Below, one piece after another: positions 3,869 to 57,209 of a DNA stretch of 57,875 nucleotides; position 1 is the stretch's first letter; the number at the start of each line of letters is the position of its first letter. The stretch is from NCBI GenBank assembly GCA_001803205.1, contig MHBE01000018.1:1-57875 (forward strand), given 5' to 3'. Made by a program: the position numbers and the translations under genes. Under the pieces are notes generated by a model, which had not been told where the DNA came from, ran no database searches, and was given only the letters and a program-made list of their open reading frames with translations. This stretch comes from Lentisphaerae bacterium GWF2_38_69 (GTDB taxonomy: Bacteria > Verrucomicrobiota > Lentisphaeria > Victivallales > GWF2-38-69).

Positions 3869-3870
3869 CA

Positions 3871-4692: not shown

Positions 4693-4704
4693 TTTAAAAG
4701 GGAT

Positions 4705-5523: not shown

Positions 5524-5528
5524 AATAA

Positions 5529-5559: not shown

Positions 5560-5562
5560 GGT

Positions 5563-5949
5563 ATGGATATAGAAAAGAGAACTTTTGATTTTGCTTTAGT
5601 TATAATTGACTTATACAAATATTTGATTTCAAAACATGAATCTGTAATCTCCAAACAACTTTTAAGAAGTGGTACTTCAATTGGAGCTAATGTTGCAGAA
5701 GCTCAAGCTGCGCAAAGCCGTAAAGACTTCATATCTAAAATGAGTATTGCTTCAAAGGAAACAAGAGAAACATACTATTGGCTGAAACTTTTAAAACATT
5801 CAAAATATCTTGATAGCTTTGAACGATTAGATTATATACTAGATGAAATTCAAATTATTGTAAACATCATCACTAAAATTGTCAAAACATCACAAACTAA
5901 CGCTTTTTATACAGGTTCTATCACTCAAAACTCACTACTCAAAACATAA
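5563..5949 (+). CDS. Four-helix-bundle protein of the bS23 / 23S rRNA intervening-sequence family
   Basis: The roughly 128-residue protein shows the family core: QLLRSGTSIGANVAEAQAAQSRKDFISKM-type residues (quoted here only as SIGANVAEAQ and RKDFISKM) and then ETRETYYWLKLL. These form an all-alpha bundle that is often found as single insertions in genomes of uncultured bacteria. No enzymatic role is established. It is not expected to act in sugar synthesis, so it interrupts the operon between rfbF and rfbG. The final residues (SITQNSLLKT) come from a heptamer repeat. The ATG at 5563 is preferred over a TTG two codons upstream. Confidence 0.8.
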   Translation: MDIEKRTFDFALVIIDLYKYLISKHESVISKQLLRSGTSIGANVAEAQAAQSRKDFISKMSIASKETRETYYWLKLLKHSKYLDSFERLDYILDEIQIIVNIITKIVKTSQTNAFYTGSITQNSLLKT

Positions 5950-6010
5950 AACTGGATTTATATGGATTCAACTCAAAACTCATCACTCAAAACTCATCAC
6001 TCAAAACTTT
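5921..6010. repeat. Heptamer-type repeats spanning the end of the bS23-like gene and the start of rfbG
   Basis: ACTCAAAACTCACTACTCA and ACTCAAAACTCATCACTCA units run through the stop of one gene and the first codons of the next. They encode the C-terminal tail of the first protein and the N-terminal extension of RfbG. Confidence 0.7.
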
Positions 6011-7071
6011 TCTATGGAATTTATTCCGGCAGAAAAGTTTTGATCACCGGTCACACTGGCTTTAAAGGTTCATGGCTTGCTTATTGGTTACTTAAAATGG
6101 GCGCAAGTGTTTGTGGGTATTCGCTAAATCCTCCAACCAATCCAAGCCATTTTGATCTGCTTAAACTTGAAATGGAATCTCATGTAGGAGATATAAGAGA
6201 TAGTAAAAGACTGCTTGCAGTCCTTGCTTCCTTTAAGCCGGAGATAGTTTTCCATCTCGCTGCTCAGCCTCTTGTGAGATTATCCTACAGAGAACCTCGA
6301 GAAACATTTGAGACAAATGTAATGGGAACGCTGAATGTTTTGGAGGCATGCCGTCAAACAGATTCAGTAAAAGCCATAGTCAACATTACCAGTGATAAGT
6401 GCTATGAAAACAGGGAATGGGTTTGGGGATATAGAGAAAATGACCCGATGGGAGGTTTTGACCCATACAGCGCTTCAAAAGGCTGCGCCGAATTAGTTGC
6501 AAGCTGCTACCGCAATTCATATTTCAATCTTGAAAAATATGATAAACAGCACGCTGTGCTGTTGGCAAGCTGCAGAGCAGGAAATGTTATTGGTGGCGGA
6601 GATTGGGCTCTTGACAGACTCGTTCCTGATATTATGAAAGCGGTTTCCAAAGGTGAGACAGTTATAATTAGAAACCCTGCTGCTACGCGCCCCTGGCAGC
6701 ATGTGCTTGAACCATTGAGCGGTTATCTTTTGGTGGGACAGAGGCTTCTTGAAGGGAAAAAAGAATTTGCCGAAGCTTGGAATTTTGGTCCTTCTGACAA
6801 CTCATCGATTTCAGTTGAGGAAGTTGTGAAAGCTATTCAGAAATATTGGCCTAGAATCAATTACAAAATTGAACAAGATAAAACTGCTGCGCATGAAGCA
6901 AATCTGTTGAAACTGGATTGTTCAAAAGCTCATATAAAACTAGGGTGGAAAGAGACTTGGAACAGCATTGAAGCATTTGAGAAAACCACTAACTGGTACC
7001 GCAATTACTATGAATCAGGAAATTTATCTACAGAAGATGATATAAATAGATTCGTGAATTGCGGCGGGTGA
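5962..7071 (+). CDS. rfbG: CDP-glucose 4,6-dehydratase
   Basis: Extended SDR of 369 residues. The Rossmann motif is GHTGFKGSWLAYWLL, followed by HLAAQPLVRLSY, SDKCYENREWVWGYRE and the catalytic YSASK. RfbG converts CDP-glucose to CDP-4-keto-6-deoxyglucose, the substrate of RfbH. About 18 N-terminal residues (through HHSKLFYG) are encoded by heptamer repeat and precede the normal family start near YSGRKVLITG. Translation may use this extended start because no ATG lies closer. The order rfbH-rfbI-rfbF-rfbG differs from the Salmonella order rfbI-rfbF-rfbG-rfbH. Confidence 0.93.
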   Translation: MDSTQNSSLKTHHSKLFYGIYSGRKVLITGHTGFKGSWLAYWLLKMGASVCGYSLNPPTNPSHFDLLKLEMESHVGDIRDSKRLLAVLASFKPEIVFHLAAQPLVRLSYREPRETFETNVMGTLNVLEACRQTDSVKAIVNITSDKCYENREWVWGYRENDPMGGFDPYSASKGCAELVASCYRNSYFNLEKYDKQHAVLLASCRAGNVIGGGDWALDRLVPDIMKAVSKGETVIIRNPAATRPWQHVLEPLSGYLLVGQRLLEGKKEFAEAWNFGPSDNSSISVEEVVKAIQKYWPRINYKIEQDKTAAHEANLLKLDCSKAHIKLGWKETWNSIEAFEKTTNWYRNYYESGNLSTEDDINRFVNCGG

Positions 7072-7131
7072 CTCGTGAATAGTAGGTAGCGACAGAAAGA
7101 TAAAGTTTTGAATGTTGAGTTATGAGTTTTG
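7069..7131. repeat. Composite heptamer cluster after rfbG
   Basis: GTGACTCGTGAATAGT is followed by AGTTTTGAATGTTGAGTTAT and then GAGTTTTGG. This is the reverse-oriented version of the two-family cluster seen at 3807 and 31684. A separate CACGAAT-type run follows near 7198-7235. Confidence 0.6.
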
Positions 7132-7278
7132 GATAAGGTATTTTAAATTCGCGGATAAAGTCTCAAAGCTTATGGAAATGAAGGAAGAGCTTTTGGGTCA
7201 ACGAATTGCCGCAGATTGACACGAATATCTAGAGGAAATTTCGAGTAATTAGTGCTTAAAAGCTTGCTGCAAAAAAAG

Positions 7279-7593
7279 ATGGAAAGAAAGACAGTAAAAT
7301 TTGATATTGATAAAATGTCATAGCACCTCTTTTGGGATGTTGATAGGTCAAAACTTGATCCTGAAAAAAGCAAAAAACTTATTATTCACAGAGTGCTTGA
7401 TTATGGTTTAATAGAAGACTTCTTATATATAAGAAATTTATACGGAATATCAGAAATTGGCAAAGTGGCCGTTACTATTAGAGACTTGGAATTAAATTCA
7501 ATGACTTTAATTTCATTATTGGTCAATATTCCAAAGGAAAAATTTAGATGCTATATTACAAGACCGTCACAGAAGATACACTGGAACTTCTGA
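7279..7593 (+). pseudogene. DUF6922-like protein with an in-frame TAG
   Basis: After a TAG at 7321 the frame encodes LFWDVDRSKLDPEKSKK, IIHRVLDYGLIEDFLYIRNL and LLVNIPKEKFRCY. These are typical of the small DUF6922-type partner gene that precedes AbiEii-like nucleotidyltransferases. Fourteen in-frame codons with an ATG lie before the TAG, suggesting a nonsense mutation. The next frame, an AbiEii relic, overlaps its 3' end as in intact pairs. Confidence 0.6.
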
Positions 7594-7948
7594 GACTCCT
7601 TCAGCGTCCATGGATTGCTTCATCTATCAAAGAGGATCAATTGATTCTTGCTGACAAATGCGACATAGCCGCAATGAAACTTTCAGCAATTACAAACAGA
7701 GGAAGAAGAAGGATTTTATTGATATTTACTTTTTGCTCAAAGGGTTCTCTTTATCAGAAATGTTACACTTTTATAAGCAAAAATATGCTGATGGGACTCT
7801 GTTTCTTGTTCTGAAAAGCCTAACTTATTTTGAAGATGCCGAAGAAGATGAAATGCCGCTTATGCTAATAGATATAAAATGGACTGAAGTTAAAGATTTT
7901 ATTATGATGCAAATAAAAAACTATTTTATCGGTAAATCTAATGATTGA
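7548..7948 (+). pseudogene. AbiEii-type nucleotidyltransferase toxin relic
   Basis: The start region encodes MLYYKTVTEDTLELL, the usual beginning of this family. The central GGTALAL...DIDLF catalytic region is missing, so there is an internal deletion. The C-terminal part reappears as IAAMKLSAITNRG, then shifts frame near 7690 to KKDFIDIYFLLKGFSLSEML and YFEDAEEDEMPLML. The catalytic core is absent, so this cannot be active. A second, intact copy of the same module is at 29627-30500. Confidence 0.75.
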
Positions 7949-8042
7949 TTCAAAGTGTTCCGTGAACTATTGTGCTATTAGCAGTTAATAGTGATATAAT
8001 AATCTTCGTTAGTTTAAATATTTAAGGAGATGCTACGAAAAG

Positions 8043-8438
8043 GTGTATGTCCCATTAGAAGTTAGCGATGAATTGAACTTCAAAAATTCCGCTAAATACG
8101 GAGCAGATATATTCAATTCGACTGATTTTCTTAAAAAGGAGACTCAATATCAAGCCATTCATGCATATTTGAAAAACTCTTTAGACATTGGAGAAGCCTC
8201 TGTTATTCAATGTGCATTGAGCAGGAATATTCAAATAGTTTGTATAGATGAAGCTGTAGGTCGCAGAATCGCAAGACTGAATTCTTTAAAAATAACAGGT
8301 TCTCTTGGCATAATCGTAAAAGCGATAAAAAGCGGGTTTAAAGCTGATTTTGATGCGCTTGTTCGTAATATGCTCGCTAGAAACATATACCTGTCTTCAG
8401 CCTTAATTGAAAAAGCAAAAAAAATGCTTATGGATTAG
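8043..8438 (+). pseudogene. C-terminal part of a DUF3368 PIN-like toxin
   Basis: Residues include YVPLEVSDEL, LDIGEASVIQCAL, VCIDEAVGRRIAR and ITGSLGIIVKA, all diagnostic of the DUF3368 PIN-like group. The expected N-terminus, with the first acidic residue and SSPLI motif, is missing. Translation could only begin at a GTG inside the domain. An AAGGAG site and ATG just upstream are in another frame. The complementary N-terminal half of such a protein is at 29350-29610. Probably nonfunctional. Confidence 0.65.
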
Positions 8439-8485
8439 TTATGAATTTTGAGTGAATATTAGAGTAGATTAGGGGTTGGTTAATA

Positions 8486-8878
8486 ATGTTAAACTTAATA
8501 AAGCTTGCATTTAAAAATCAGTTTTTTCTATTTTTGGTAGTAGGAGGAATTAATACTGTATTTGGATACTGCATATTTGCTTTGTTCATTTATATAGGTT
8601 TGCATTACACTTTAGCTGTTTTGTTTTCGACAGTAATCGGAATATTATTTAACTTCAAAACCTATGGTAGTATAGTCTTTAAATCACATAATAATAAACT
8701 TATTTTTAGATTTTTTGCAGTTTATGCAATCACCTATATAATAAATGTTGCATATCTCAAAGTTTTCATTCCATATTGCAATGTTTATATTTTGGGAGCT
8801 ATCGCAATTATACCATTAGCTATTATATCTTATTTTTTGAATAAGAAATTTGTGTTTGAAGGAGGAGGCAAAAAATGA
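8486..8878 (+). CDS. GtrA-family membrane protein
   Basis: 130 residues with four predicted membrane segments and the GtrA opening FLFLVVGGINTVFGYCIF. The second half contains FRFFAVYAITYIINVAYLKV and ends NKKFVFEG. GtrA proteins are associated with moving undecaprenyl-phosphate-linked sugars across the inner membrane during O-antigen glycosylation, and usually work with a GT2-family glucosyl-type transferase such as the one at 22342. The stop overlaps the start of the TPP enzyme gene by 4 bp, indicating translational coupling. Confidence 0.88.
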   Translation: MLNLIKLAFKNQFFLFLVVGGINTVFGYCIFALFIYIGLHYTLAVLFSTVIGILFNFKTYGSIVFKSHNNKLIFRFFAVYAITYIINVAYLKVFIPYCNVYILGAIAIIPLAIISYFLNKKFVFEGGGKK

Positions 8879-10674
8879 TTAGAATTGCTGATTATATAGT
8901 CAAATATCTGGAAGAATACGGTATAAAACATATTTTCATGATTTCCGGCGGCGGGGCGATGCATCTGAATGATGCTATCGGTAAAAGCAAAAAGATAAAG
9001 TATATATGCAATCATCACGAACAGGCCTGTGCCATAGCTGCCGAAGGGTATGCAAGAGTCACGAATAAACTCGCTGTTGTGAATGTTACTTCAGGCCCCG
9101 GAGGAACAAATACAATGACTGGCGTTATAGGACAATGGCTTGATTCAGTGCCTGTTCTATATATATCAGGACAAGTGAAGTTTGAAACGACAATTAAATC
9201 ATGTCCTGAAATAGGCCTCAGACAGTTGGGAGATCAGGAGATCAATATAACTGATATTGTTAAACCTGTCACCAAATATTCTGTTATGTTGACAAATCCT
9301 GATGATGTAAGAGCTGAACTTGATAAAGCAATATTTTTCGCTACATCAGGAAGGCCTGGTCCAGTATGGATTGATGTCCCCTTGAATGTTCAAGGAGCCA
9401 TGATTGATGAAACACAACTTCCAGGATGGCTGCCAGATATCCCTATTAAGTCGGTTTTGAATGAATCACTCGTTGATCAAACTATAAAACTGATTGAATC
9501 GTCAGAAAGACCAATCGTTATTGCCGGACATGGAATAAGAATAGCCAATGCTCAACAGCAATTTTTAAAACTTATAGAAAAACTTAACATTCCGGTTGTT
9601 ACTACTTTTAATGGTTTCGACCTTATCCCAAGCGAACATAAAAACTATATTGGAAGAATAGGAACTTTAGGAACTAGGCCTGGAAACTTTGCCTTACAAA
9701 ATGCTGACCTAATTATATGCATTGGAACAAGAAACAATATAAGGCAAGTTAGTTATAGTTGGCAGTCATACGCTAGAGCCGCAAAGAAAATAATAGTGGA
9801 TATAGACGGGACAGAACTTAATAAACCAACTATCAAACCTGATATTGCTATAAATGCCAGTGCTTTGGATTTTATCAATAACCTAAACTCGAAATCAGGA
9901 TTACTTAAAGTAAATAGGTTTGATGAATGGTGTGACTGGTGCACAATCCGCAAAAATAAATATCCTGTAGTCCTTCCAGGGTATAAGACTGATGATAAAA
10001 TAAATCCTTACTTTTTTATAGAAACATTAACTAAGAAAATGAGTGAAGGTTCTATCTGTGTAGCAGGAAATGGAACTGCCTGCGTCGCACTTTTTCAGGC
10101 AGGTATAGTTAAAAACAACCAGCGGTTGTTCTGGAATTCAGGTTGCGCTTCTATGGGATATGATATTCCTGCTGCACTTGGTGCAAGTGTTGCTTCCGGA
10201 AAAGAAGTTATTTGTCTGGCAGGAGACGGAAGCGCTATGATGAACATTCAGGAACTTCAAACCATTGCCTACAATAAATTACCTGTAAAAATATTTCTTC
10301 TTAATAATGATGGATATATATCAATTAAACAGACTCAGCATAGTTTTTTTGGCGGTAATATGGTTGCAACAGATAAAAATTCTGGAGTTGGATTTCCTGA
10401 TTTTATCAAAGTTGCTGAAGCTTTCGGTCTAAAAACTGAAAAAATCAGCAATTCTAATGAAATGGATTTCAAAATAGATAAAACTCTATCAGCAGAAGGT
10501 TCTATCCTTTGCGAAGTTATCCTGGATCAAGATTATATTTTTCAACCAAAGTTATCTTCAGAAAAGAAACCGGATGGAAGAATGATATCAAAACCTCTTG
10601 AGGATCTTTATCCATTTCTATCAAGAGAAGAATTTTTAAGTAATATGATTGTTAAACCCATCAATGAAGATTAA
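8875..10674 (+). CDS. Thiamine-diphosphate-dependent enzyme of the acetolactate synthase superfamily
   Basis: 599 residues with three domains: an N-terminal PYR domain with the catalytic glutamate in NHHEQACAIAAEGYAR, a central domain, and a C-terminal PP domain with the metal/TPP motif GDGSAMMNIQELQ...NN. Family members decarboxylate or ligate 2-keto acids. Context suggests a sugar-modifying role: YerE, for example, adds a two-carbon acetyl unit from pyruvate to CDP-3,6-dideoxy-4-keto-glucose, and rfbF/G/H/I supply exactly that substrate. IolD-like cyclitol ring opening is another possibility because a sugar phosphate cyclase lies downstream. A housekeeping acetolactate synthase is less likely since no small subunit is present. 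Confidence 0.8.
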   Translation: MIRIADYIVKYLEEYGIKHIFMISGGGAMHLNDAIGKSKKIKYICNHHEQACAIAAEGYARVTNKLAVVNVTSGPGGTNTMTGVIGQWLDSVPVLYISGQVKFETTIKSCPEIGLRQLGDQEINITDIVKPVTKYSVMLTNPDDVRAELDKAIFFATSGRPGPVWIDVPLNVQGAMIDETQLPGWLPDIPIKSVLNESLVDQTIKLIESSERPIVIAGHGIRIANAQQQFLKLIEKLNIPVVTTFNGFDLIPSEHKNYIGRIGTLGTRPGNFALQNADLIICIGTRNNIRQVSYSWQSYARAAKKIIVDIDGTELNKPTIKPDIAINASALDFINNLNSKSGLLKVNRFDEWCDWCTIRKNKYPVVLPGYKTDDKINPYFFIETLTKKMSEGSICVAGNGTACVALFQAGIVKNNQRLFWNSGCASMGYDIPAALGASVASGKEVICLAGDGSAMMNIQELQTIAYNKLPVKIFLLNNDGYISIKQTQHSFFGGNMVATDKNSGVGFPDFIKVAEAFGLKTEKISNSNEMDFKIDKTLSAEGSILCEVILDQDYIFQPKLSSEKKPDGRMISKPLEDLYPFLSREEFLSNMIVKPINED

Positions 10675-10678
10675 TTAA

Positions 10679-11344
10679 ATGAAACTTAAAACTATACTCC
10701 TTACAGGAGCTTCGAAAGGAATAGGAAAAGCTATTTATAATGAGCTTTCAGATACTGGAGATTATAATATTCTAGCTCCTACAAGAGAGGATATGAGCCT
10801 TGATGATTCTTTGTCCATTGATTCGTACATGAGGAATAACCAGGAAGTGGATATTGTTATTAATAATGCAGGGATTAATATCATTAATCCTATTGAAAAC
10901 ATTTCTGAAGCTGATATTCAATCAATGATTATGGTTAATCTGACTGCTCCTTTAAAAATTATTCAGAAATGTGTGCCTCATATGAAAAAGAATCGGTGGG
11001 GTAAAATTATAAATATAAGCTCAATTTGGGGATTAAGGTCAAAGGAATTTAGAACAATGTATTCTATGACAAAATTCGGGGTTAATGGGATAACAAAAGC
11101 TCTTGCTAGAGAATTGGGAGAATTTAATATTCTTGTTAACTCGGTTTGCCCCGGCTATGTAAATACAGAGATGACTATAAAAAATGTTCCCGAAGAGGAG
11201 GCCGGAAAAATTAAAAGCACTATCCCCCTTAGAAGATTTGCAGAACCATCTGAAATAGCTCGACTAGTTAAATTTTTAGTATCTGTCGATAATACATATA
11301 TAACTGGAGAGACAATTCTTATTGATGGAGGGTTTCTATCTTGA
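10679..11344 (+). CDS. Short-chain dehydrogenase/reductase
   Basis: 221 residues with a classical SDR layout: TGASKGIGKAI for cofactor binding, NNAGIN, the catalytic Ser in NISSIWG, the YSMTKFG Tyr-x3-Lys pair, and CPGYVNTEM. The C-terminus DGGFLS is the usual SDR end. It lies 4 bp after the TPP enzyme gene, and its TGA overlaps the TTG start of the cyclase-like gene. It probably reduces the keto product of its neighbours. FabG-type activity cannot be excluded from sequence alone. Confidence 0.85.
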   Translation: MKLKTILLTGASKGIGKAIYNELSDTGDYNILAPTREDMSLDDSLSIDSYMRNNQEVDIVINNAGINIINPIENISEADIQSMIMVNLTAPLKIIQKCVPHMKKNRWGKIINISSIWGLRSKEFRTMYSMTKFGVNGITKALARELGEFNILVNSVCPGYVNTEMTIKNVPEEEAGKIKSTIPLRRFAEPSEIARLVKFLVSVDNTYITGETILIDGGFLS

Positions 11345-12414
11345 ATAAAATATCAATTCATTCTAATATCCACAATTATCAAGCAGAGTTTTATGATGAT
11401 TTTTCCTTCTTTGAGAGTATTAAGCAAATAAAAAATAAAGCTATTATTGCAGATGCTAATATTATAAGACTTTATTCTGATTTGATCAATAAATATTTAC
11501 CTGGTGAAAGTATATACTCGTTCGAAGCAATTGAAGAAAATAAAACTATAAACAAAGCTTGTGAAATTTATGAATGGATTATTTCTGCTAATGCGAAAAA
11601 AAATATGACTCTCGTTTCTCTTGGAGGCGGTATTACTCAGGATGTTACAGGTTTTGTAGCTTCAACTCTTTACAGAGGTATAAACTGGATATTTATTCCT
11701 ACTACGCTCCTTGCGCAGACTGATAGCTGCATAGGAAGTAAAACATCAATTAACTTTAAGTCGTATAAAAACCTTATTGGGACATTTTATCCTCCGGGTA
11801 AGCTTTTCATTAACACATCTTTTATAAATACACTTACTGAACGAGATTTTTACAGCGGGCTTGGGGAAGTAATAAAATTCCAATTAATGAAAGGCGGAGA
11901 TAAAAATATAGATGATATTTTTGCTCTTATTGAGAGTTGCAAAAAAGACAAAAGTTATCTTCAGAAGGTAGTTCATGAAGATATGATAATAAAGCTATCT
12001 TACATGGAAGGAGATGAATTTGATGCAGGACGCAGAAACCTATTAAATTATGGTCATTGTTTCGGGCATGCCCTGGAATCATCATCAAGTTATTATATCC
12101 CACATGGGATTGCTGTTAATATAGGGATTATTTTTGCAAATATTATTTCTGTAAAAAGAAATTTGTTGAATTCAGAACTTTCTGAAAGATTAACGCATAT
12201 TGTGAATAAGCCTAATATTTATATCAAACTTAGAGAATCTGACTTTGAAGAAGGTAAACTGTTAGCTGCTTTAAAAAATGACAAAAAAAGAATCGGGAAT
12301 GCTCTGACTGTCGTAATTCCTGAGAATAACAACTTTGAATTGATAAAAGCTGATGATGTGACCGAAGCAGAGTTTAAGATAACATTAAATGAACTTAAAA
12401 ATATTTTATTTTGA
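11341..12414 (+). CDS. 3-dehydroquinate-synthase-like sugar phosphate cyclase
   Basis: 357 residues of the AroB/sugar phosphate cyclase fold. The NAD site is SLGGGITQDVTGF, followed by IPTTLLAQTDSCIGSKTSIN and KNLIGTFYPP. Zinc ligands are present as Glu in GLGEVIKFQ and His residues in LNYGHCFGHALE and YIPHG. Genuine AroB has GGKT where this protein has GSKT. Known relatives make cyclitol precursors (2-deoxy-scyllo-inosose, valiolone types). Position between an SDR and an aldolase inside a sugar locus, away from any aromatic-pathway gene, argues for a specialised role. The start is TTG, overlapping the upstream stop. Confidence 0.75.
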   Translation: MNKISIHSNIHNYQAEFYDDFSFFESIKQIKNKAIIADANIIRLYSDLINKYLPGESIYSFEAIEENKTINKACEIYEWIISANAKKNMTLVSLGGGITQDVTGFVASTLYRGINWIFIPTTLLAQTDSCIGSKTSINFKSYKNLIGTFYPPGKLFINTSFINTLTERDFYSGLGEVIKFQLMKGGDKNIDDIFALIESCKKDKSYLQKVVHEDMIIKLSYMEGDEFDAGRRNLLNYGHCFGHALESSSSYYIPHGIAVNIGIIFANIISVKRNLLNSELSERLTHIVNKPNIYIKLRESDFEEGKLLAALKNDKKRIGNALTVVIPENNNFELIKADDVTEAEFKITLNELKNILF

Positions 12415-12427
12415 GGGGAAAATATAA

Positions 12428-13225
12428 ATGAATTCTATTGAAAAAGAAATGCTATCAGTTCTCAGAGAACTAAAAGAAAAATACGGCGTATTTGAAATTA
12501 AAGCTGAATTTGAAGCCGAAGGCAGCAGAATGGAAGAGTTAATGCGCCTCAAAGATGTTACTTCAGCTGCTGGTCTTCCGATAATACTTAAGATTGGTGG
12601 GGTAGAAGCTGTAACGGATATATATAATGCACTTTCAATTGGGGTAAAGGGTATAATTGCCCCAATGGGGGAGACCCCATTTGCTATAAGCAAATTTCTT
12701 GGAATTATTGACAAGATGGTACCTAAAGATAATGCTGAAGATATAGACTTTGCTTTCAATATGGAAACTATTACCTGTTACAATAATTTTGATCATATTT
12801 TAGCATTACCTAAGATAAATTTACTGCATGGAGTGACTGTCGGACGCGTGGATCTTACAGGCTCTCTTGGACTAGATAGGACATCAGTTGAATCTAAGGA
12901 AGTCTTTGATATTTGCAGAGACACTTTTATTAAAGCTAGAAAGAAAGTCCTTAAGACAGGTTTGGGCGGAGCCATATCCACAAGCAGCATAGATTTTATT
13001 AAAAAACTCAATACTGAGAAGCTCATTGATAAATTTGAAACAAGAAAAGTGGTCTTTCCTGCTGAATCAGCAAGCTACGGGGATAAGGCCATCCTTAAAT
13101 CCATAGAGTTTGAACTAAAGTGGCTGGTAAGCAAACGCCGCTTCTATTCAGGGATTAAATCCGAAGACGAAGCCAGAATTGCAATGCTGGAAAAGAGAAT
13201 TGCTTCAGGAATTGCAGCCGATTAA
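12428..13225 (+). CDS. HpcH/HpaI (CitE-like) aldolase-family protein
   Basis: 265 residues with a TIM-barrel pattern: EIKAEFEAEGSRMEELMRL near the start, LKIGGVEAVTDIYNA, GIIAPMGETPFA, the metal-ligand region FNMETITCYNN and VGRVDLTGSLGLDR. The last corresponds to the IGPNDLS-type motif of the superfamily. These enzymes make or break C-C bonds next to a keto acid such as pyruvate. It begins 13 bp after the cyclase-like gene with a GAGGGG site. It is the last gene of the cassette, so a carbon-chain extension or ring-precursor aldol step is plausible. No precise substrate can be assigned. Confidence 0.75.
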   Translation: MNSIEKEMLSVLRELKEKYGVFEIKAEFEAEGSRMEELMRLKDVTSAAGLPIILKIGGVEAVTDIYNALSIGVKGIIAPMGETPFAISKFLGIIDKMVPKDNAEDIDFAFNMETITCYNNFDHILALPKINLLHGVTVGRVDLTGSLGLDRTSVESKEVFDICRDTFIKARKKVLKTGLGGAISTSSIDFIKKLNTEKLIDKFETRKVVFPAESASYGDKAILKSIEFELKWLVSKRRFYSGIKSEDEARIAMLEKRIASGIAAD

Positions 13226-13229
13226 ATAT

Positions 13230-13307
13230 GTGAATAGTGAATCGCGATTCGGGGCTAGTGGATTATGAAGAAGGTTATGAATGATGAGTTTTGAATTTTG
13301 AGTTAAC
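13230..13307. repeat. Composite heptamer cluster, first copy of a 51-bp direct repeat
   Basis: TGTGAATAGTGAATCGCGATT is followed by a 51-bp unit (13257-13307) ending TTGAATTTTGAGTTAAC. The same unit recurs at 13754-13804 with two mismatches. The cluster separates the sugar cassette from the relic-filled region. Confidence 0.8.
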
Positions 13308-13372
13308 TCAGAACTATATTCTCCATACATTTTTGTGAGGAAAATTGATTCGTGCACGAGAGGAGTTGATAA

Positions 13373-13534
13373 ATGAATATTATTGATTTTGAAGTAATTG
13401 AAAATAAAATTATTGAAATAAGGAACGAGAAAGTCCTCCTCGATAATGATGTGGCAAGTTTATACGGAGTTGAAACTAAAAGAGCTAGCTACAGTCCAAA
13501 GCAAAGCAAAGCAAATCAAAACAAAAATCGCTAA
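13373..13534 (+). pseudogene. Truncated ORF6N-domain protein
   Basis: 53 residues begin EVIENKIIEIRNEKVLLDNDVASLYGVETKR in two parts (VIENKIIEIRNEKVLLDND and VASLYGVETKR). This is the start of the phage-related ORF6N DNA-binding domain, which normally spans about 80 residues in proteins of about 200. The frame then leaves the family and ends in a low-complexity CAAAG run. A GAGAGGAG-like ribosome site precedes the ATG. Confidence 0.6.
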
Positions 13535-13662
13535 TGCAAAGAAGTGGGGAAGTTATCGCAGATGTTTTGGGAGATGACTTGGAAGCCACTGATAGTGAAA
13601 CTTCGATAGAGATCAATTTTGCAGTTTTAAAATTTAAACATCTGATAAAGAAAAAGAAATGA
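13534..13662 (+). other. Short unidentified open frame, possible gene 3' fragment
   Basis: A 42-codon frame encodes an acidic segment (IADVLGDDLEATDSE) and a basic end (KHLIKKKK). I do not recognise it. It sits between the ORF6N relic and a glycosyltransferase fragment, so it is likely another gene remnant. Confidence 0.25.
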
Positions 13663-13683
13663 TTACATCAAACCACGAACCAC

Positions 13684-13721
13684 GGTCATATTAGGTCTCT
13701 ATATCTGGTCTGCTTCAGGCA
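13684..13721 (+). pseudogene. 38-bp fragment related to a GT2 glycosyltransferase gene
   Basis: 35 of 39 aligned positions match 22582-22620 of the GT2 gene, the codons for GHIRSPYHGLLQA. There are three substitutions and one single-base gap. Two of the substitutions are in third codon positions, so it derives from a diverged homologue rather than a recent copy of that gene. Confidence 0.6.
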
Positions 13722-13730
13722 CTGTTTCGG

Positions 13731-13804
13731 AGTGATGTTCGTGATTCGTGGATAGTGGATTATGAAGAAAGTTATGAATGGTGAGTTTTGAATTTTGAGT
13801 TAAC
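13731..13804. repeat. Composite heptamer cluster, second copy of the 51-bp direct repeat
   Basis: GTTCGTGATTCGTGGAT is followed by the 51-bp unit at 13754-13804, with 49 of 51 bases identical to 13257-13307. Its terminal TTAA is the insertion point of the IS1634-family element. Confidence 0.8.
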
Positions 13805-16339: not shown

Positions 16340-16894
16340 GTGCGCCATAGGCACAAGGAGGTATAATTTGTGAAATTATAGCAAATAGTAAAAAGCTCTA
16401 TGATAGATGAGGGAACCGACCCCTCGATATCGGTATTCAGGTACTGGTATCAAACCACTTCAAGCTGCTGTTGTAAAGAGCAATGGTAGTGAGCGTTGAT
16501 GAAAGCTGGAACATAATCCAGCAAGGTATGGACTTGAAAGACGAGTAAACCCGAACCTTTGTTGAAGCATCGAAAACGGTAGATGACATCAAAATTGGAG
16601 CCTTTCCCGCGTTCCAAGAGAAGCATGCAAAGAGCCTGACTATTGTGTATGCGGTGTCCGGTGTATAGAAGGCGTGAGTCTAGTCTGGGCTATTATAGGG
16701 AACTATGGGAAGTAGTCGCTTGGATGTTAAGAGAGAAACTCAAGTAGGCAAAATTACGAGAGTGAGAGTATCAATGCCAAGAACTATGACGGAATTGCTT
16801 GTAGTAGTGTTGAAGTTCCTGTAGTGGGAATGGAGCGAAGAATCAATGTTAGATAGGCTTTATTTACTATCCAACTTATTTAAAGGATGAAATT

Positions 16895-17496: not shown

Positions 17497-17500
17497 ACCT

Positions 17501-17588
17501 CCTTATGCAAAGAAAGTTATTATGCAAAGTTAGCCTCCTAAAGTGCTTATATAAAACATTTCGAAGCAGATTCACTTTGCATAATATC
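17501..17588 (+). repeat. Left 88-bp terminal inverted repeat of the RIT element
   Basis: It begins CCTTATGCAAAGAAAG and ends TTTGCATAATATC. It is the exact reverse complement of 20862-20949 as read by eye. Within it TTATGCAAAG occurs twice at its outer part, and CTTTGCATAA marks its inner end, so it contains several potential recombinase arm sites. Confidence 0.9.
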
Positions 17589-17632
17589 CTAAAATGACAA
17601 CTGGGGTTAACACTTTAATTATCATTTTAGGA
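17587..17632 (+). promoter_or_regulatory. Hairpin overlapping the ritA ribosome binding site
   Basis: TCCTAAAATGA (17587-17597) pairs perfectly with TCATTTTAGGA (17622-17632), with a 24-nt loop. The 3' arm contains most of the AGGAGG ribosome binding site (17629-17634). In RNA the hairpin would hide the ritA start; in DNA it could be an operator for self-repression. The 5' arm begins at the inner edge of the terminal repeat. Confidence 0.5.
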
Positions 17633-17642
17633 GGCATCTATG

Positions 17643-18878
17643 ATGCAAAAAAAGACACTGTCTGAACTGCTACATGACTTAGAGTCTGAAATGCGGCGGC
17701 TCGGATACACCAACGCTTCTATTCAGTTTTATAGAAGACGGTGGCAAATGCTTCTTAAATTCGCACAAGAACGAGGTGAAATATTTTACTCTGAACGTTT
17801 GGGAATAGATTTTGTCGAAAAGCATTTCCAGATTTTAGAGAAAGATTTTGATCGGAAGCTTTCACAGCAAGATACTCAGGAACTGCGTATCATACGAGTT
17901 ATCGGGGATTTTCAGTTACATCATACCGTTTTGCGCAGGTATTACAAGCATAAAGAAATCCTTACCGAACCATCTTTCATAGCAATCAGTAATAGGTTTG
18001 CATCATATTGCAAAAATAAGAGTTATTCCGTAGTTACAATTGGCCATTATATCAAGCAATCTGCACGGTTTATGGATTATCTTGCTTCTCAAAATGTTAC
18101 AGACTGTACAACCATCAGCCTTCCTTTGATTCACGACTATATTAGAACCCTTATGGGTTACACTTACAAAACCGTGGAACAGAATATATGTTCCATGCGC
18201 ACCTTCTTCCGTTTCCTTTTAGAAATAGAGGAAGTTCAGACCGATTTTGCTGCAAAAACTCCGATGGTTCAGGCAAGAAAACAGACACGTATTCCATCTG
18301 TCTGGACAGCAGCTGAATTAAAAACACTGATCTTAGCTATTGACAGGGGAAGTCCAAAAGGCAAACGGGATTATGCCATAATTCTTCTGGCCTGCAGACT
18401 AGGAATGCGTTGTACAGATGTTAAACATCTAAAAATGGAGAATTTTCATTGGGAAGATAAGAAGCTAGTTTTTATCCAATCTAAGACAAGAACCGCCTTG
18501 ACTCTTCCGCTTACAGCTGAAGTGGGCTGGGCTGTTATCGATTATCTCAAATACGGCCGCCCTAAAATAGACAGCTCCTATGTTTTTGTAAAGCACATGG
18601 CTCCTTTTGGTCCATTTTCAGAGAGTGACCATTTATGCCGATTGATTAAAGGGTACATGGAGCAGGCACATATTCCTGTTCTGAAAAAAAGGAGGGGAAT
18701 GCATTCTCTACGGCACACTTTGGCCAGCATGCTCCTTGAAAAAGACACGCCCCTTTCTACCATTTCAGATATTCTCGGTCATATCGACACTGATTCGACA
18801 AGTGTCTATCTGAAAGTTGACATAAAGAAGCTAAAGGAATGTTCCCCTGCTTTTGAGGAGGGAAGCGATCATGAATAA
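17643..18878 (+). CDS. RIT tyrosine recombinase A
   Basis: About 411 residues with an N-terminal SAM-like core-binding region and a C-terminal catalytic domain. Catalytic residues are Arg in LACRLGMRCTDV, the H-x-x-R pair in MHSLRHTLASML, His in ILGHIDTDST and the Tyr in SVYLKV. First of three recombinase genes in one operon. ATG 17643 is 8 bp after AGGAGG; the ATG one codon upstream is also possible. RitA proteins are thought to act together with RitB and RitC in strand exchange, but the division of labour is unknown. Confidence 0.88.
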   Translation: MQKKTLSELLHDLESEMRRLGYTNASIQFYRRRWQMLLKFAQERGEIFYSERLGIDFVEKHFQILEKDFDRKLSQQDTQELRIIRVIGDFQLHHTVLRRYYKHKEILTEPSFIAISNRFASYCKNKSYSVVTIGHYIKQSARFMDYLASQNVTDCTTISLPLIHDYIRTLMGYTYKTVEQNICSMRTFFRFLLEIEEVQTDFAAKTPMVQARKQTRIPSVWTAAELKTLILAIDRGSPKGKRDYAIILLACRLGMRCTDVKHLKMENFHWEDKKLVFIQSKTRTALTLPLTAEVGWAVIDYLKYGRPKIDSSYVFVKHMAPFGPFSESDHLCRLIKGYMEQAHIPVLKKRRGMHSLRHTLASMLLEKDTPLSTISDILGHIDTDSTSVYLKVDIKKLKECSPAFEEGSDHE

Positions 18879-20857: not shown

Positions 20858-20861
20858 CTTA

Positions 20862-20949
20862 GATATTATGCAAAGTGAATCTGCTTCGAAATGTTTTATA
20901 TAAGCACTTTAGGAGGCTAACTTTGCATAATAACTTTCTTTGCATAAGG
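20862..20949 (-). repeat. Right 88-bp terminal inverted repeat of the RIT element
   Basis: Reverse complement of 17501-17588 with no mismatch seen. It ends CTTTGCATAAGG directly against the resumed RT codons. Confidence 0.9.
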
Positions 20950-20950
20950 C

Positions 20951-21610
20951 GGAGTAATAAGTCCAGTTCTAAGTAATTTATTCCTTCACTATGTATTTGA
21001 TGTTTGGATGACTAAGCATCATAAGAACAAGCCATGGTGCAGGTATGCGGATGATGGGATAGCACACTGCAAAACAGAATCTGAGGCTCAAGCTTTACTT
21101 ATCGAGCTTAAGAAAAGGTTTAGTGAGTGCAGACTTGAACTTCATCCGGAGAAGACGAAGATAATTTATTGCAAAGACAATAAGCGTACAGGAGAATACC
21201 AGAATACGAAGTTTACATTTCTAGGGTATGATTTTCAAGGCAGACAGGTTATGGGTAAATATGGAAGATTCTTTTCCTTTACGCCGTCAGTTAGTAAAGA
21301 AGGCAGGAAGGAAATGAACACAGTTATCCGAAATTTGTCGTTGAGAAGGAGAACTGATTTAGAAATAGAATCTATAGCAGAGTGGATAAATCCAATCATG
21401 AGGGGGTGGATAAACTACTATGGAAAATATAACAAATCAGGGATGTATTGTGTATTCAATTGCTTTAACCGCACCCTGGTGCGATGGGCAAGAAAGAAGT
21501 ACAAGAATTTGCGAGCATCCAAAACTCAAGCTGTTAAGTTCATGGAATGTATTGCTGATAGAAGTCCAAACCTTTTTGCGCATTGGAGATATGTTGATGG
21601 TTTTATCTAA
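20951..21610 (+). pseudogene. Group II intron-encoded protein, C-terminal part
   Basis: The frame reopens with GVISPVLSNLFLHYVFDVWM, then the catalytic CRYADDGIAHC, LELHPEKTKIIYCKD and FTFLGYDF. A maturase-like domain X follows (IAEWINPIMRGWINYYGKY). It ends NLFAHWRYVDGFI, the usual end of endonuclease-lacking intron proteins. The sequence is undamaged apart from separation from its N-terminus, so excision of the RIT without the palindrome would restore the full gene. Confidence 0.88.
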
Positions 21611-21613
21611 TGG

Positions 21614-21647
21614 AAGCGTAATGAATCGAGAGGTTCCCGTTACGTTT
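21614..21647 (+). ncRNA. Group II intron domain V
   Basis: 34 nt starting AAGCGTAATG. The AGC catalytic triad is present, the terminal GAGA is a GNRA tetraloop closed by AATC/GGTT, a CC-containing bulge follows, and GTAA/TTAC plus AAGC/GTTT complete the helix. A domain VI-like hairpin with GAG/CTC and a bulged A lies between 21650 and 21687. Confidence 0.75.
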
Positions 21648-21687
21648 TGCGAGGGGCTGGAGGGGAAGTTCCGCCGGTCTACTCACC

Positions 21688-30894: not shown

Positions 30895-31887
30895 ATGCTT
30901 TCAGTATTTTTAACTGGCGGGACAGGATTTTTCGGGAAGAATATTTTGAGGAAGCTTCAGTCTGATGTCAAACTCACAATATTATCTAGAAATCCTGAGA
31001 ATTTTATCAACGAGTTTCCAGAATTAATCAAGGGGCACGAAGTGTCTTTTGTAAAGGGGGATATAAGAGATTTCAAGTTGCCGCCAGATTTGGTGTTTGA
31101 TTATGTAATTCATGGAGCTACCGAAGCCAGCGCCAAGCTTGAAAAAGAAAATCCACAGGAGATGTATTCTGTTATAGTTGACGGAACTAAACATCTTCTT
31201 AAGCAAATTACCGGACGAGGAATCAAGCGGCTCTTATTTATAAGCTCAGGCGGAGTTTACGGCCAGCAACCGGCTGATTTATCAAATATCCCCGAAACCT
31301 ATCCGCCATCGCCTATAACATACTACGGCAAAGGTAAACTTGAGGCAGAAAGGCTATGTGTAGCCTCTGGTATTGCATCAGTAATTGCTAGGTGTTTTGC
31401 GTTTGTTGGCCCTTATCTTCCGTTAGATACTCATTTTGCAATAGGTAATTTTATATTGAATGGACTTAAAAATGACCCAATTATAATCAAAGGAGATGGT
31501 CGTCCCTATCGTTCTTATATGTATGCAGATGATTTAATAAATTGGCTATGGTCCATTTTATTAAAAGGCAAGGTAGGGGAAATTTATAATGTTGGTTCAG
31601 AAGAAGCAATTTCTATCGCCGATCTAGCTCGGTTAGTCAGTTCCTGTTTCACAGACAAACCTGAAGTTAAAATTCTCGGCATCCCAACCCAAAACCCAAA
31701 ACTCATAACTCAAAACTATTCTATCGAACCACTAACCACGAGTCACGAGCCACTAAAGCCCGAGCGTTATGTCCCTTCCACCCAGAAACCCCAAAGTGAG
31801 CTTGGATTGACATTGCGCACTAATTTAAAAGATGCTATACTTGAGACAATTGTTTGGAATACTAAACTTTTTAAAATTAAATCATGA
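30895..31887 (+). CDS. NAD-dependent nucleotide-sugar epimerase/dehydratase
   Basis: 330-residue extended SDR with FLTGGTGFFGKNILRKL (NAD binding), VIHGATEAS, FISSGGVYG, the catalytic YYGKGKLEAE and YRSYMYADDLINWLW. It probably modifies C4 or another position of a nucleotide sugar made by the rfb genes. Substrate not assignable. Residues about 264-289 (TQNPKLITQN then YSIEPLTTSHEPLKPE) are encoded by a composite heptamer repeat inserted in frame before the normal C-terminal RTNLKDAILETI, apparently without destroying the gene. Confidence 0.82.
   Translation: MLSVFLTGGTGFFGKNILRKLQSDVKLTILSRNPENFINEFPELIKGHEVSFVKGDIRDFKLPPDLVFDYVIHGATEASAKLEKENPQEMYSVIVDGTKHLLKQITGRGIKRLLFISSGGVYGQQPADLSNIPETYPPSPITYYGKGKLEAERLCVASGIASVIARCFAFVGPYLPLDTHFAIGNFILNGLKNDPIIIKGDGRPYRSYMYADDLINWLWSILLKGKVGEIYNVGSEEAISIADLARLVSSCFTDKPEVKILGIPTQNPKLITQNYSIEPLTTSHEPLKPERYVPSTQKPQSELGLTLRTNLKDAILETIVWNTKLFKIKS
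31684..31760. repeat. In-frame composite heptamer repeat within the epimerase gene
   Basis: CCCAAAACCCAAAACTCATA, AACTCAAAACTATTCT and CCACGAGTCACGAGCCAC follow one another, the same order as at 3807-3868. The length is compatible with the reading frame. Confidence 0.7.
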
Positions 31888-52447: not shown

Positions 52448-54280
52448 TCAATTTTTTTTAAGTTGTATCTGCTCTTTCTGGAGATGTGATATTTCCAGCA
52501 TTTTCGACTCTTTTTCTTCTTCACTTTCAAGATTTTTGAGCTCTTTTGTCAGAAGTTCAACTTTTTCTCTGATTCGAATGATTTTAATAGAGCGTATGCA
52601 GTCCATGCAAACTTTGATTCTCGTTTCATTGTTTTTATAGGGCAGATCTTCATGGACAAGCACCTGTGCAATTACAGCATTTGCCGGATCATCATTTACC
52701 ATAAGGCTTAAATGTTTTATAATTTCTTCCCATTCTCCATTGATAGTCATAGATATTGCAAGGTTTACAGCGTTCCCGACTGGAGATGAACTTATCAGCT
52801 CAGGAGGGAGATTTTCTTCCGTTATTCTTGCTATTTCTCCGCCGTTTTGTTCAATGATAAGTCTAAGAAGAAGTTTCTCGGCTTCATTTGTCGGTGATGC
52901 TTTCTGTGTTGTTGGTTGAAGAGCAATTGGGTTTCGCTGTATTTTCCCATCCTGATAATTTTTGCTTCTATTAAGAAGTTTAATATGCTCAAAACCTGTG
53001 TTTGCGGGAATCCCAAGTTTGTCTGATGCTACTGAGATATAGCTTGACCTAAGAATAGTATCCTGGATTTTTGAAAGTTTGGCAAAAATTTCGGTTATGA
53101 TGTGACTTTTGACAACCGGAGAAGAAATATCTTTTTCTTTTGACAGATAAGTAAGCATAAAGTCGAGAAAGTCAGAAGCGCTATCGATTGCATTCTGTAG
53201 AGATTCCTTTCCTGATTTCCTGAAAAGTGAATCAGGATCTTCTCCTTCCGGAAGGGAAATTATTTTTACTTCAATACCCAGAGGCAATAAGAGATCCAGC
53301 GCTTTTATTGCAGCATTGATTCCTGCATTGTCCGCATCAAAGCAAAGATAAATTTTTTCAGTAAGTCGTTTAAGCATCCTGGCCTGATCTTCGGTGAAGG
53401 CTGTGCCCTGAGGAGCGACGCAGTTTGTAAATCCAGCCCGGTGCATGGATATAACATCTATCTGTCCCTCGCAGAGAATGGCAAAAGCTCGTTCTTTAAT
53501 CTCTTTTTTAGCTAAATGATAAGCGTAGAGAACTTTACTTTTTTTGAATATGAGGGTTTCAGGGCTGTTTATATATTTGCCTTCTTTTGTTTCCTTTAAA
53601 ATTGTTCTGGAGCTGAAACCTACTATTTCGCCGTGTTCGTCCCATATCGGGAAAGTTACTCTGTTTCTGAACCTGTCATAGAGCCTATTGGCGCTTTCAC
53701 TCCTGAGAACGAGCCCAGACTCCAGCATCTCGCTCTGAGAATAAGACATCGAAGTAAGAAGTTTTGTAATTGAATCCCATGAATCAGGCGCAAAGCCCAG
53801 TCCAAACTTCGTTATGATGTCATCGGGAATCTCTCTTGTTCTGATATATTCGAGGCCTGCAGCTCCTTCTTGTTTAAAAAGCCTCTCTGAATACCAGTTA
53901 GCTACAGCTTTATGAATAGATATGAGCTTTTCCTTGAGGCTTTTTTGTTTGCTATAATCAGATTGAGATTGAGAGGAAGAATTTTCTTCAGGAATTAAAA
54001 TGCCGCATCTGTCAGCAAGGATTTTAGCAGCTTCCGGGAAGGTAAGGTTTTCCTTTTCCATAAGAAAAGTAAAAACATTTCCTCCCTTCCCGCAACCAAA
54101 ACAGTGAAATGATTGAGTTTCCCTGGAAACTACAAAAGAGGGTGTTTTTTCATTATGAAAGGGACAGAGAGCTTTTAGTCTTGAACCGGATTTCTTGAGT
54201 TCTGCATAAGGTAAGATTATATCCGTTATATCAGTTTTAGACCGAATCTGAGAGATAATTTCATCTGAAATATAAGGCAT
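52448..54280 (-). CDS. dnaG: DNA primase
   Basis: 610 residues. The CHC2 zinc finger is CPFHNEKTPSFVVS...FHCFGCGKGG near the start. The RNA polymerase core has FGLGFAPDSWDSI and VGFSSRTI. The TOPRIM fold has AILCEGQIDVISMHRAG and YLCFDADNAGINAAIKALDL with the metal-binding acids. The C-terminal helicase-interacting region is about 440-610. It makes RNA primers for replication. The heptamer array lies 10 bp before its start, so any promoter must be in or beyond the array. Confidence 0.96.
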   Translation of the reverse strand: MPYISDEIISQIRSKTDITDIILPYAELKKSGSRLKALCPFHNEKTPSFVVSRETQSFHCFGCGKGGNVFTFLMEKENLTFPEAAKILADRCGILIPEENSSSQSQSDYSKQKSLKEKLISIHKAVANWYSERLFKQEGAAGLEYIRTREIPDDIITKFGLGFAPDSWDSITKLLTSMSYSQSEMLESGLVLRSESANRLYDRFRNRVTFPIWDEHGEIVGFSSRTILKETKEGKYINSPETLIFKKSKVLYAYHLAKKEIKERAFAILCEGQIDVISMHRAGFTNCVAPQGTAFTEDQARMLKRLTEKIYLCFDADNAGINAAIKALDLLLPLGIEVKIISLPEGEDPDSLFRKSGKESLQNAIDSASDFLDFMLTYLSKEKDISSPVVKSHIITEIFAKLSKIQDTILRSSYISVASDKLGIPANTGFEHIKLLNRSKNYQDGKIQRNPIALQPTTQKASPTNEAEKLLLRLIIEQNGGEIARITEENLPPELISSSPVGNAVNLAISMTINGEWEEIIKHLSLMVNDDPANAVIAQVLVHEDLPYKNNETRIKVCMDCIRSIKIIRIREKVELLTKELKNLESEEEKESKMLEISHLQKEQIQLKKN

Positions 54281-54290
54281 GAACTAGTTA

Positions 54291-54458
54291 TGAGTTTTGA
54301 GTTGTGAGTTGTGAGTTATGAGTTGTGAGTTATGAGTTGTGAGTTATGAGTTGTGAGTTGTGAGTTATGAGTTGTGAGTTATGAGTTGTGAGTTGTGAGT
54401 TGTGAGTTATGAGTTGTGAGTTATGAGTTTTGAGTTTTGAGTTTTGAGTTTTGAGTTG
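54291..54458. repeat. Tandem array of 24 heptamers, TGAGTTN
   Basis: 168 bp divide exactly into 24 units of TGAGTTN with no phase error. The seventh base is G in 12 units, A in 7 and T in 5, never C. It sits between dnaG and the TPR lipoprotein gene, directly upstream of both dnaG's start and, in reverse, the other gene's end. Confidence 0.9.
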
Positions 54459-54488
54459 TGAAGCGGGATGGAGATTTGGGTTTAGGAT

Positions 54489-55262
54489 TTAACTCTTAAG
54501 TTCTCTAAGCCTCTTAGAGAAATATTCTCTCTGGGAATCGAAAGCGCTGTTTCCTATTGTCAGGGTAATGAATTTCCTGTAAAAATATTTGGCCTGTTTT
54601 TTATCGCTCATATATTTATCCCTGAATATGCCCAGGTTTGCAACAATAGTTGGATTTTTGTCGGCTAACCTATAAGCTTTAAGGAAATTTTTAAGAGCTG
54701 AATTGTAGTCTTTTAAGGAAAGATAGTAAGTTGCAAGGTTGTTATATACTTCAGGTTTATCAGCAAATTGTTTAGTTTGAGCAAGCTTCAGATAGAGAGC
54801 AGGAGTATTTTTAGCCAGAAGTTTGCCTGCGCATTGTGAATATAGTACGAGAGTGTCGATATTGTCATTATTCAGATTATACGCATTGCCCAGATTCTCA
54901 TAAGCTTCTTCGTAGTTTTGATTCTTATAAAGCATTTCTCCCAGGCTTAATTGGGCAAGAAAATTGTTAGGGTTTCCAAATACGATATTCCTAAGAGTTT
55001 TAATTGCATCTTCTCTTTTGCCCAGTTTATCCTGGCTGATCGCATACATAACCTGGGCATCAATATTATTGTTATCAGCTTTAAGAGCCATTTCTGCATA
55101 GGTTTGGGCTTCGCTCCAATCGCCGTTAGTAAGAGCTGTATCCACTGATGCCTTTAAAGCAGCATCAGAGTTTTCCATTTTCTTTCCGCAAGCAGAAAAG
55201 AAGAGTAAAGATACTATGGCTAAGGAAGTTAAAGTAAATTGGATAAAAAACTTTTTTGACAT
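54489..55262 (-). CDS. TPR-repeat lipoprotein
   Basis: 257 residues. The signal ends in the lipobox LLFFSAC with the lipidated cysteine near residue 25. Repeated helix pairs with the TPR pattern follow: DWSEAQTYAEMALKADNNNI, AQLSLGEMLYKNQNYEEAY, YNNLATYYLSLKDYNSALKN and FLKAYRLADKNPT. It is a scaffold on the inner face of the outer membrane or the outer face of the inner membrane, partner unknown. Found 26 bp beyond the heptamer array. Confidence 0.85.
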   Translation of the reverse strand: MSKKFFIQFTLTSLAIVSLLFFSACGKKMENSDAALKASVDTALTNGDWSEAQTYAEMALKADNNNIDAQVMYAISQDKLGKREDAIKTLRNIVFGNPNNFLAQLSLGEMLYKNQNYEEAYENLGNAYNLNNDNIDTLVLYSQCAGKLLAKNTPALYLKLAQTKQFADKPEVYNNLATYYLSLKDYNSALKNFLKAYRLADKNPTIVANLGIFRDKYMSDKKQAKYFYRKFITLTIGNSAFDSQREYFSKRLRELKS

Positions 55263-56683: not shown

Positions 56684-56944
56684 TCACTGTTCAGGGTTTA
56701 CCATCTGTTCGTTACCTATGCTTATGCTGTACATCACATTCTTGGCCGCATAATGGCTGATCCAGCTAGACCCATAGCCTGAGGCCATATTCGCTCGCGC
56801 CTCCATCGATATATCTCCCGGTGATCCGGGGTCAGGAGAGAACTCTTTAACCGGGTGCAGGGATAAGCAGGGCGCAGTGTCTGTCCACGATGTGTTGTTG
56901 TCTACGGGTACTGGCTGCTTCTTCCCGTCCGCATCAACTTTCAA
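56684..56944 (-). pseudogene. 3' fragment of an unidentified gene cut by the heptamer array
   Basis: About 84 residues, with VDADGKKQPVPVDNNTSWTD and MASGYGSSWISHYAAKNVMY. I do not recognise the family. The only possible start is a TTG inside the TTCAATT array, so the true 5' part seems lost there. Codon use is more GC-rich than in the preceding genes and similar to the Rhs-like gene that follows. Confidence 0.4.
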
Positions 56945-57030
56945 TTTTCAATTTTCAATTTTCAATTTTCAATTTTCAATTTTCAATTTTCAATTTTCAA
57001 TTTTCAATTTTCAATTTTCAATTTTCAATT
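56940..57030. repeat. Tandem array of 13 perfect heptamers, TTCAATT
   Basis: 91 bp consist of 13 identical TTCAATT units. Unlike the TGAGTTN array no unit varies. It separates the fragment at 56684 from the sequence encoding the Rhs-like C-terminus. Confidence 0.9.
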
Positions 57031-57041
57031 GAATCAAGTCT

Positions 57042-57074
57042 GTCAGCAAAGATTACTCTTTGCTGACTTTGTTA
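57042..57074 (+). terminator. Hairpin with T-rich tail
   Basis: GTCAGCAAAG (57042-57051) pairs with CTTTGCTGAC (57058-57067) around a 6-nt loop, followed by TTTGTTATT. On the plus strand this resembles an intrinsic terminator, but no plus-strand gene precedes it. It lies about 140 bp beyond the 3' end of the minus-strand gene. Confidence 0.4.
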
Positions 57075-57209
57075 TTCCTCTATGATCCGATATGGGTCTT
57101 GCTTGACGCTTACGCGGTATAAACATTCCTTGTAATCCTACCACGTTGCCATGGGTAAGCTTGGAGAAATCGGGTGGGACTCAAATAGACCACATTAACT
57201 ATATATTCA

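What the first reader, a model, noticed from the sequence alone, without database searches (positions are those of the whole stretch)
54291..54458. 24 exact heptamers TGAGTTN with a restricted seventh base
The first six bases never vary while the seventh is G, A or T but never C. A substitution pattern limited to one phase is unlike ordinary drift and looks like a degenerate template or selection. The array lies just upstream of dnaG, so it may affect expression. The same unit underlies dispersed clusters elsewhere in the window.
Basis: seen in the sequence. Interest (0 to 1): 0.55.

Follow-up and report, generated by a model that had tools for sequence, protein, structure and literature searches.

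The report
Stuttering seven-letter repeat beside dnaG
A run of 24 copies of a seven-letter DNA word sits just in front of the DNA primase gene; it most likely arose by ordinary copying stutter in a genome rich in seven-letter repeats, and the pattern in its seventh letter is not unusual for such stutter.

Summary
In detail: window 54291-54458 is 24 perfect TGAGTT+N units, N = G12, A7, T5, C0. The array fills most of the 208-bp gap between a TPR gene and dnaG and ends 10 bp before the dnaG ATG. That gene pair is conserved (TPR homologue beside dnaG in 20 of 29 other loci), but the repeat is not: 0 of 59 relatives hold three units.

The interpretation (degenerate template or selection) is not supported. 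Neutral block duplication gives 9-11% of three-type arrays with all variation in one position. Variant order is non-random, as block copying predicts. Other genomes use C at position 7. The unit is not special: permuted heptamers gave 16, 36 and 8 hits against 37. Period 7 is strongly preferred in this genome, a known bacterial trend.

Verdict: a new member of a known kind, the intergenic heptanucleotide repeat. Unexplained: 12 of 23 genomic clusters lie on this 58-kb contig.

The parts
54291..54458 (+). 24 perfect heptamers TGAGTT+N (N = G12, A7, T5); on the dnaG mRNA strand the array holds no G
54286..54290 (+). partial heptamer AGTTA at the dnaG end of the array
54459..54488 (+). degenerate tail (TGAAGCGGGATGGAGATTTGGG...), heptamer-like text resembling GGATGGA and TGGGTTT arrays elsewhere in the genome
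   Evidence: resemblance judged by eye
54281..54290 (-). 10-bp spacer between array and dnaG ATG (TAACTAGTTC on the mRNA strand); no Shine-Dalgarno-like word
52448..54280 (-). dnaG, DNA primase
   Evidence: Pfam Zn_ribbon_DnaG, DNAG_N, Toprim, DnaB_bind
54489..55262 (-). TPR-repeat gene upstream of dnaG in the same direction; conserved neighbour
   Evidence: Pfam; homologue in 20 of 29 other dnaG loci
5970..6010 (-). related degenerate cluster (TGAGTTT / TGAGTGA); here it forms the predicted N-terminus of ORF 5962-7071
31686..31719 (-). related cluster (TGAGTTA, TGAGTTT, TGGGTTT)
13278..13304 (+). related cluster (TGAATGA TGAGTTT TGAATTT TGAGTT); near-copy at 13775-13801
56934..57030 (+). second, unrelated heptamer array TTTTCAA, about 14 copies

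Best explanation
A neutral or nearly neutral heptanucleotide tandem repeat that expanded by replication slippage or unequal recombination (duplication of blocks of one, two or three units) from a short seed in the TPR-dnaG spacer. The seed belongs to a family of degenerate TGRGTKN-type heptamer clusters scattered mostly through the gene gaps of this genome. The seventh base looks restricted because only a few substitutions occurred and were then multiplied with the blocks that carried them (GA and GAG blocks, a TTTT run). Shown: exactness, position, lineage specificity, period-7 preference, other phases free in sister clusters, non-random order. Inferred: slippage as the copying step, and little effect on dnaG.
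For: Period 7 dominates: 15 exact runs against 0-3 for periods 4-6 and 8-13, with 6 at the harmonic 14, in 404 kb; 0 in 126 kb and 172 kb of two same-family genomes. Of the 15, 5 lie in the window and 4 in the 6 stretches picked because one search had hits there; the other 6 lie in the 14 stretches picked without regard to hits. Neutral slippage simulation: 91 of 822, 342 of 3630, 407 of 4189 and 75 of 806 three-type arrays have all variation in one position. Fewer distinct 2- to 5-unit words than shuffles, P 0.005-0.01. The C27 array has a 21-bp higher-order block TGAGTTT TGGGTTA TGGGTTA repeated. The TTTTCAA family shows homogeneous runs of variants (TTATCAA, TTTTCCA). The array is lineage-specific in a conserved gene pair.
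Against: No read or strain data, so slippage was not seen. Longest repeated word in the seventh-base string is not significant (P 0.18). The absence of C fits any model only loosely. The concentration of TGAGTT clusters on this contig (12 of 23, P about 2e-15) is not predicted by simple slippage. The simulation's duplication and substitution settings were my choice.
Confidence: 0.8

Rival explanations
1. Cis-regulatory leader: the array is kept because its G-free, unstructured transcript lets ribosomes (30S/S1) load on an SD-less dnaG start, with copy number tuning primase output, as proposed for TAACTGA repeats in Beggiatoaceae.
For: Array ends 10 bp before the ATG with no SD; leader of 208 nt with only 2 G and essentially no predicted structure (-1.6 kcal/mol); it lies between two same-direction, conserved neighbours. 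MacGregor 2015 reports SD-less repeat-bearing leaders (PMC4679880, abstract, section 13).
Against: Lack of structure follows from composition (z -0.43 against shuffles). 25 of 43 ORFs examined in the window lack an SD-like word, so lack of SD at dnaG is ordinary. No relative keeps the array. Clusters also fall inside coding text.
Confidence: 0.12
2. Degenerate template or selection on the seventh base: units are written from, or read by, something that fixes six bases and leaves the seventh as A, G or T.
For: Six bases are invariant in 24 units and C is absent; own-genome clusters with at least two exact units, focal array included, hold T20 G13 A11 C0 at position 7.
Against: Sister clusters vary at positions 1-4 and 6; C27 varies at 3 and 7; other genomes have C at position 7 (19 of 53 seventh bases in 15 arrays of the phylum); order is non-random; neutral expectation is about 10%.
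Confidence: 0.03
3. Assembly artefact: the assembler miscounted or mixed copies of a short array.
For: Repeats do break this assembly: of 10 multi-hit places of the TTTTCAA family on 9 contigs, 8 lie within about 0.9 kb of a contig end, the two on C47 do not.
Against: 168 bp can be spanned by ordinary reads with mates (general knowledge); the focal array is 3.4 kb inside the contig, and its mixed seventh bases give unique anchors.
Confidence: 0.05

Closest known systems
Heptanucleotide long simple sequence repeats of bacteria (Mrazek 2007, known to me only as cited in PMC4679880 and PMC4692102)
   Same: 7-bp unit, intergenic, lineage-scattered, slippage proposed
TAACTGA direct repeats (MacGregor 2015, PMC4679880)
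   Same: 7-bp unit, directly upstream of start codons, few SD words, arrays up to 43 copies in some species, mixed with other heptamers
   Different: Unit differs: TGAGTTA is the complement of TAACTCA, one base from TAACTGA; in that paper's Table 3 TAACTCA shows no direct repeats in the BOGUAY genome; there 169 sets, here 23 clusters
Class II repeat NNTGAGT of the cyanobacterial tRNA-Leu intron P6b stem-loop (PMC4476775)
   Same: Heptamer with TGAGT core and degenerate flanking positions; length change by whole units
   Different: That one builds an intron hairpin; this one is unstructured and intergenic
GGGAATC / GGGANTN repeats of Xanthomonas and GGGGA(T/C)T of Nostoc (PMC4692102)
   Same: Heptamer arrays where only certain positions vary, intergenic
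   Different: Those are G-quadruplex candidates; TGAGTTN has no G-run

Membership tests
Bacterial heptanucleotide tandem repeat (STRR / LSSR) | 7-bp unit in head-to-tail copies beyond chance | tested here: met
Bacterial heptanucleotide tandem repeat (STRR / LSSR) | Mainly intergenic | tested here: met
   focal array lies between ORFs; most window clusters fall in gene gaps, but those at 3807, 4446, 5970 and 31686 lie wholly or partly in predicted coding text
Bacterial heptanucleotide tandem repeat (STRR / LSSR) | Copy number varies between strains | not testable with these tools
   no second strain held; nearest genome shares only 56% DnaG identity
TAACTGA direct repeats | Unit TAACTGA | tested here: not met
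   unit is TGAGTTN / NAACTCA
[quoted passage not shown]
Class II NNTGAGT P6b repeat | Part of a tRNA-Leu group I intron hairpin | tested here: not met
   the Rfam scan of the window gave only two group II intron matches, none here; no structure
Class II NNTGAGT P6b repeat | Heptamer with TGAGT core | tested here: met
   motif read in passages of PMC4476775
Contingency (phase-variation) locus | Repeat number switches expression of the adjacent gene | not testable with these tools
   needs strains or reporters

The most novel reading that the evidence does not exclude
TGAGTT-type heptamers spread locally from one gene gap to the next by an undescribed short-range copying process, which would explain why 12 of 23 genomic clusters sit on this one 58-kb contig, nine of them between 3.8 and 13.8 kb; the dnaG array is one such seed that then expanded. 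This is conjecture: only the regional concentration was measured.
Probability: 0.12. Interest if true: 0.5.

Novelty: new member of a known kind. Interest (0 to 1): 0.22.

Why it matters
It shows that a striking one-phase substitution pattern in a tandem array needs no special mechanism: array units share ancestry, so few mutations look like a rule. It adds an unnamed bacterium to those rich in heptamer repeats, and gives one natural test case (a conserved TPR-dnaG pair with and without a 24-unit array) for the old question whether such arrays tune the next gene.

Tried and rejected
Degenerate template or selection on position 7: rejected on sister arrays, order test and neutral simulation. 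TGAGTTN as a specially favoured word across bacteria: rejected, since one of three letter-permuted controls was as common (36 against 37 stretches, the others 16 and 8); mixed seventh base was also no rarer in controls (10 of 34 arrays for TGAGTT; 8 of 17, 6 of 35 and 2 of 8 for controls). RNA structure of the leader: none beyond composition. Promoter between array and dnaG: the consensus scan found 5 sites against 3.0 expected, none inside the array. A C-free rule for all heptamers of this genome was considered; it fits the exact period-7 runs, but the CCACGAN clusters hold both C and G, so I do not claim it. Papers: five searches listed none on TGAGTTN arrays as such.

Full report
Observation. 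The sequence at 54291-54458 is 24 perfect units of TGAGTT plus one base. The seventh bases in order are TGGAGAGAGGAGAGGGAGATTTTG: G12, A7, T5, C0. Tandem Repeats Finder gives this array the top score in the window. The coordinates and description in the finding are right.

Setting. dnaG lies at 52448-54280 on the - strand and a TPR-repeat gene at 54489-55262 on the same strand. The array takes up most of the 208-bp gap and ends 10 bp before the dnaG ATG; the spacer TAACTAGTTC holds no SD-like word. That is not unusual here: 25 of 43 ORFs of at least 150 codons examined in the window had no such word by the same test, with start codons taken mechanically. On the mRNA strand the 168-bp array has no G at all, and the 208-nt leader has two. 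The predicted fold is essentially open, no more so than shuffles.

Relatives. The TPR gene is found next to dnaG in 20 of 29 other dnaG loci from relatives (several of the others are cut by contig ends). In the nearest relative (56% DnaG identity) the gap is about 20 bp by eye, and in the next about 128 bp, neither with heptamers. Three consecutive TGAGTTN units occur in 0 of 59 relatives of the same family and order and in 10 of 387 genomes of the phylum, own genome included. So the array is a lineage-specific insertion or expansion in a conserved gene pair.

The one-phase pattern. Tandem units are copies of one another. Two substitutions, T to G and G to A, spread by block duplication, can give all three types. 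In a neutral simulation of block duplication and random substitution, 9-11% of arrays with exactly three unit types had all variation at one position, at four mutation rates. The order of types is less varied than in shuffles (10 distinct three-unit words against 14.8, P 0.005; 13 four-unit words against 18.3, P 0.005), as block copying predicts and an independent draw at each unit does not; the longest repeated word alone is not significant, P 0.18.

A search allowing three mismatches gave 23 clusters in the genome, merging neighbouring hits by eye. The second longest, at C27:35130-35285, has A or G at position 3 and A or T at position 7, with a repeated 21-bp block. Flanking units of the nine other two-or-more-unit clusters in the DNA held differ at positions 1 (1), 2 (7), 3 (5), 4 (3), 5 (0) and 6 (6) (15 flanking units with one or two mismatches counted, 3 unrelated ones dropped). 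In other genomes C occurs at position 7: 19 of 53 seventh bases in 15 arrays of the phylum, and 21 of 195 in 42 arrays of IMG/VR contigs. These searches leave position 7 free by design, which is why I rely on flanking units for the other positions.

Is the unit special? Four-unit arrays of TGAGTTN were found in 37 stretches of IMG/VR; three letter permutations gave 16, 36 and 8. So TGAGTTN is common but not unique. Within these, 10 of 34 TGAGTT arrays had mixed seventh bases, against 8 of 17, 6 of 35 and 2 of 8 for controls.

Is the length special? Yes, in this genome. In 404,068 bases (window plus 20 stretches) exact repeats of period 7 number 15, against 0, 1, 0 for periods 4-6, 0, 1, 0, 0, 3, 0 for 8-13, 6 at 14 and 1 at 15. 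Six of the 20 stretches were chosen because one search had hits there; they and the window give 9 of the 15, and the other 14 stretches give 6. Two same-family genomes gave none in 126 kb and 172 kb. A second family, TTTTCAA with variants TTTTCCA, CTTTCAA and TTATCAA, forms arrays at ten places, eight of them near contig ends (single weak hits left out). Its variants form uniform runs, again as expected from local copying.

What remains odd. Of the 23 TGAGTT clusters, 12 lie on the window's contig, 1.9% of the genome (binomial P about 2e-15; a stricter count of 8 of 17 that I set by hand gives 3e-10). Nine lie between 3.8 and 13.8 kb, in or beside the gaps of a stretch with several sugar-nucleotide-type genes. 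Some are copies of each other (13278 and 13775), so the P value overstates independence. Slippage alone does not explain this.

Literature. MacGregor 2015 (PMC4679880; abstract and sections 3, 8, 10, 13 read) describes TAACTGA heptamers upstream of start codons and cites Mrazek 2007 for heptamers being the most abundant class and for slippage. PMC4692102 (passages) describes heptamers with only some positions variable. PMC4476775 (passages) gives the degenerate heptamer NNTGAGT in cyanobacterial tRNA-Leu introns; PMC3488679 (passages) describes such repeats as a hairpin. PMC12699852 (passages) had no match for heptamer or heptanucleotide. The kind is known; this member is new as far as those searches show.

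Verdict. A real, lineage-specific heptanucleotide array, best explained by slippage. A role in dnaG translation is possible from its place but not supported by conservation. Interest is low, with the regional clustering as the one point worth another look.

Noticed in passing
window 56934-57030 and contigs C4, C13, C24, C27, C40, C47, C51, C52: A second heptamer family (TTTTCAA with variants at positions 1, 3 and 6) forms arrays that mostly sit within about 0.9 kb of contig ends, beside a dispersed repeat.
   Followed up: partly
window 57031-57114: A dispersed sequence with an 11-bp-stem hairpin (GTCAGCAAAGA...TCTTTGCTGAC, z -5.0) recurs at many contig ends and stops at a sharp boundary after TGACGCTTAC, like the end of a mobile element in several near-identical copies.
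   Followed up: partly
window 3807-3836, 4446-4472 and 5962-6010: Heptamer text is read into proteins: the C-terminus of a DegT aminotransferase, an inner stretch of an NAD-binding ORF and the predicted N-terminus of a GDP-mannose dehydratase-like ORF.
   Followed up: partly
window 3807-13801: Nine TGAGTT-type clusters in 10 kb, far above the genome average.
   Followed up: partly
window 16409-16526 and 21612-21687: Two group II intron matches in Rfam; a 95-bp inverted repeat at 17498-17592 and 20859-20952 lies between them, with a tyrosine recombinase-like gene at 17640-18878.
   Followed up: no
C7:62871 and C53:12629: TTTTGAG/TTTTCAG heptamer text inside a duplicated, about 90% identical repeat-rich region that looks coding.
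   Followed up: no
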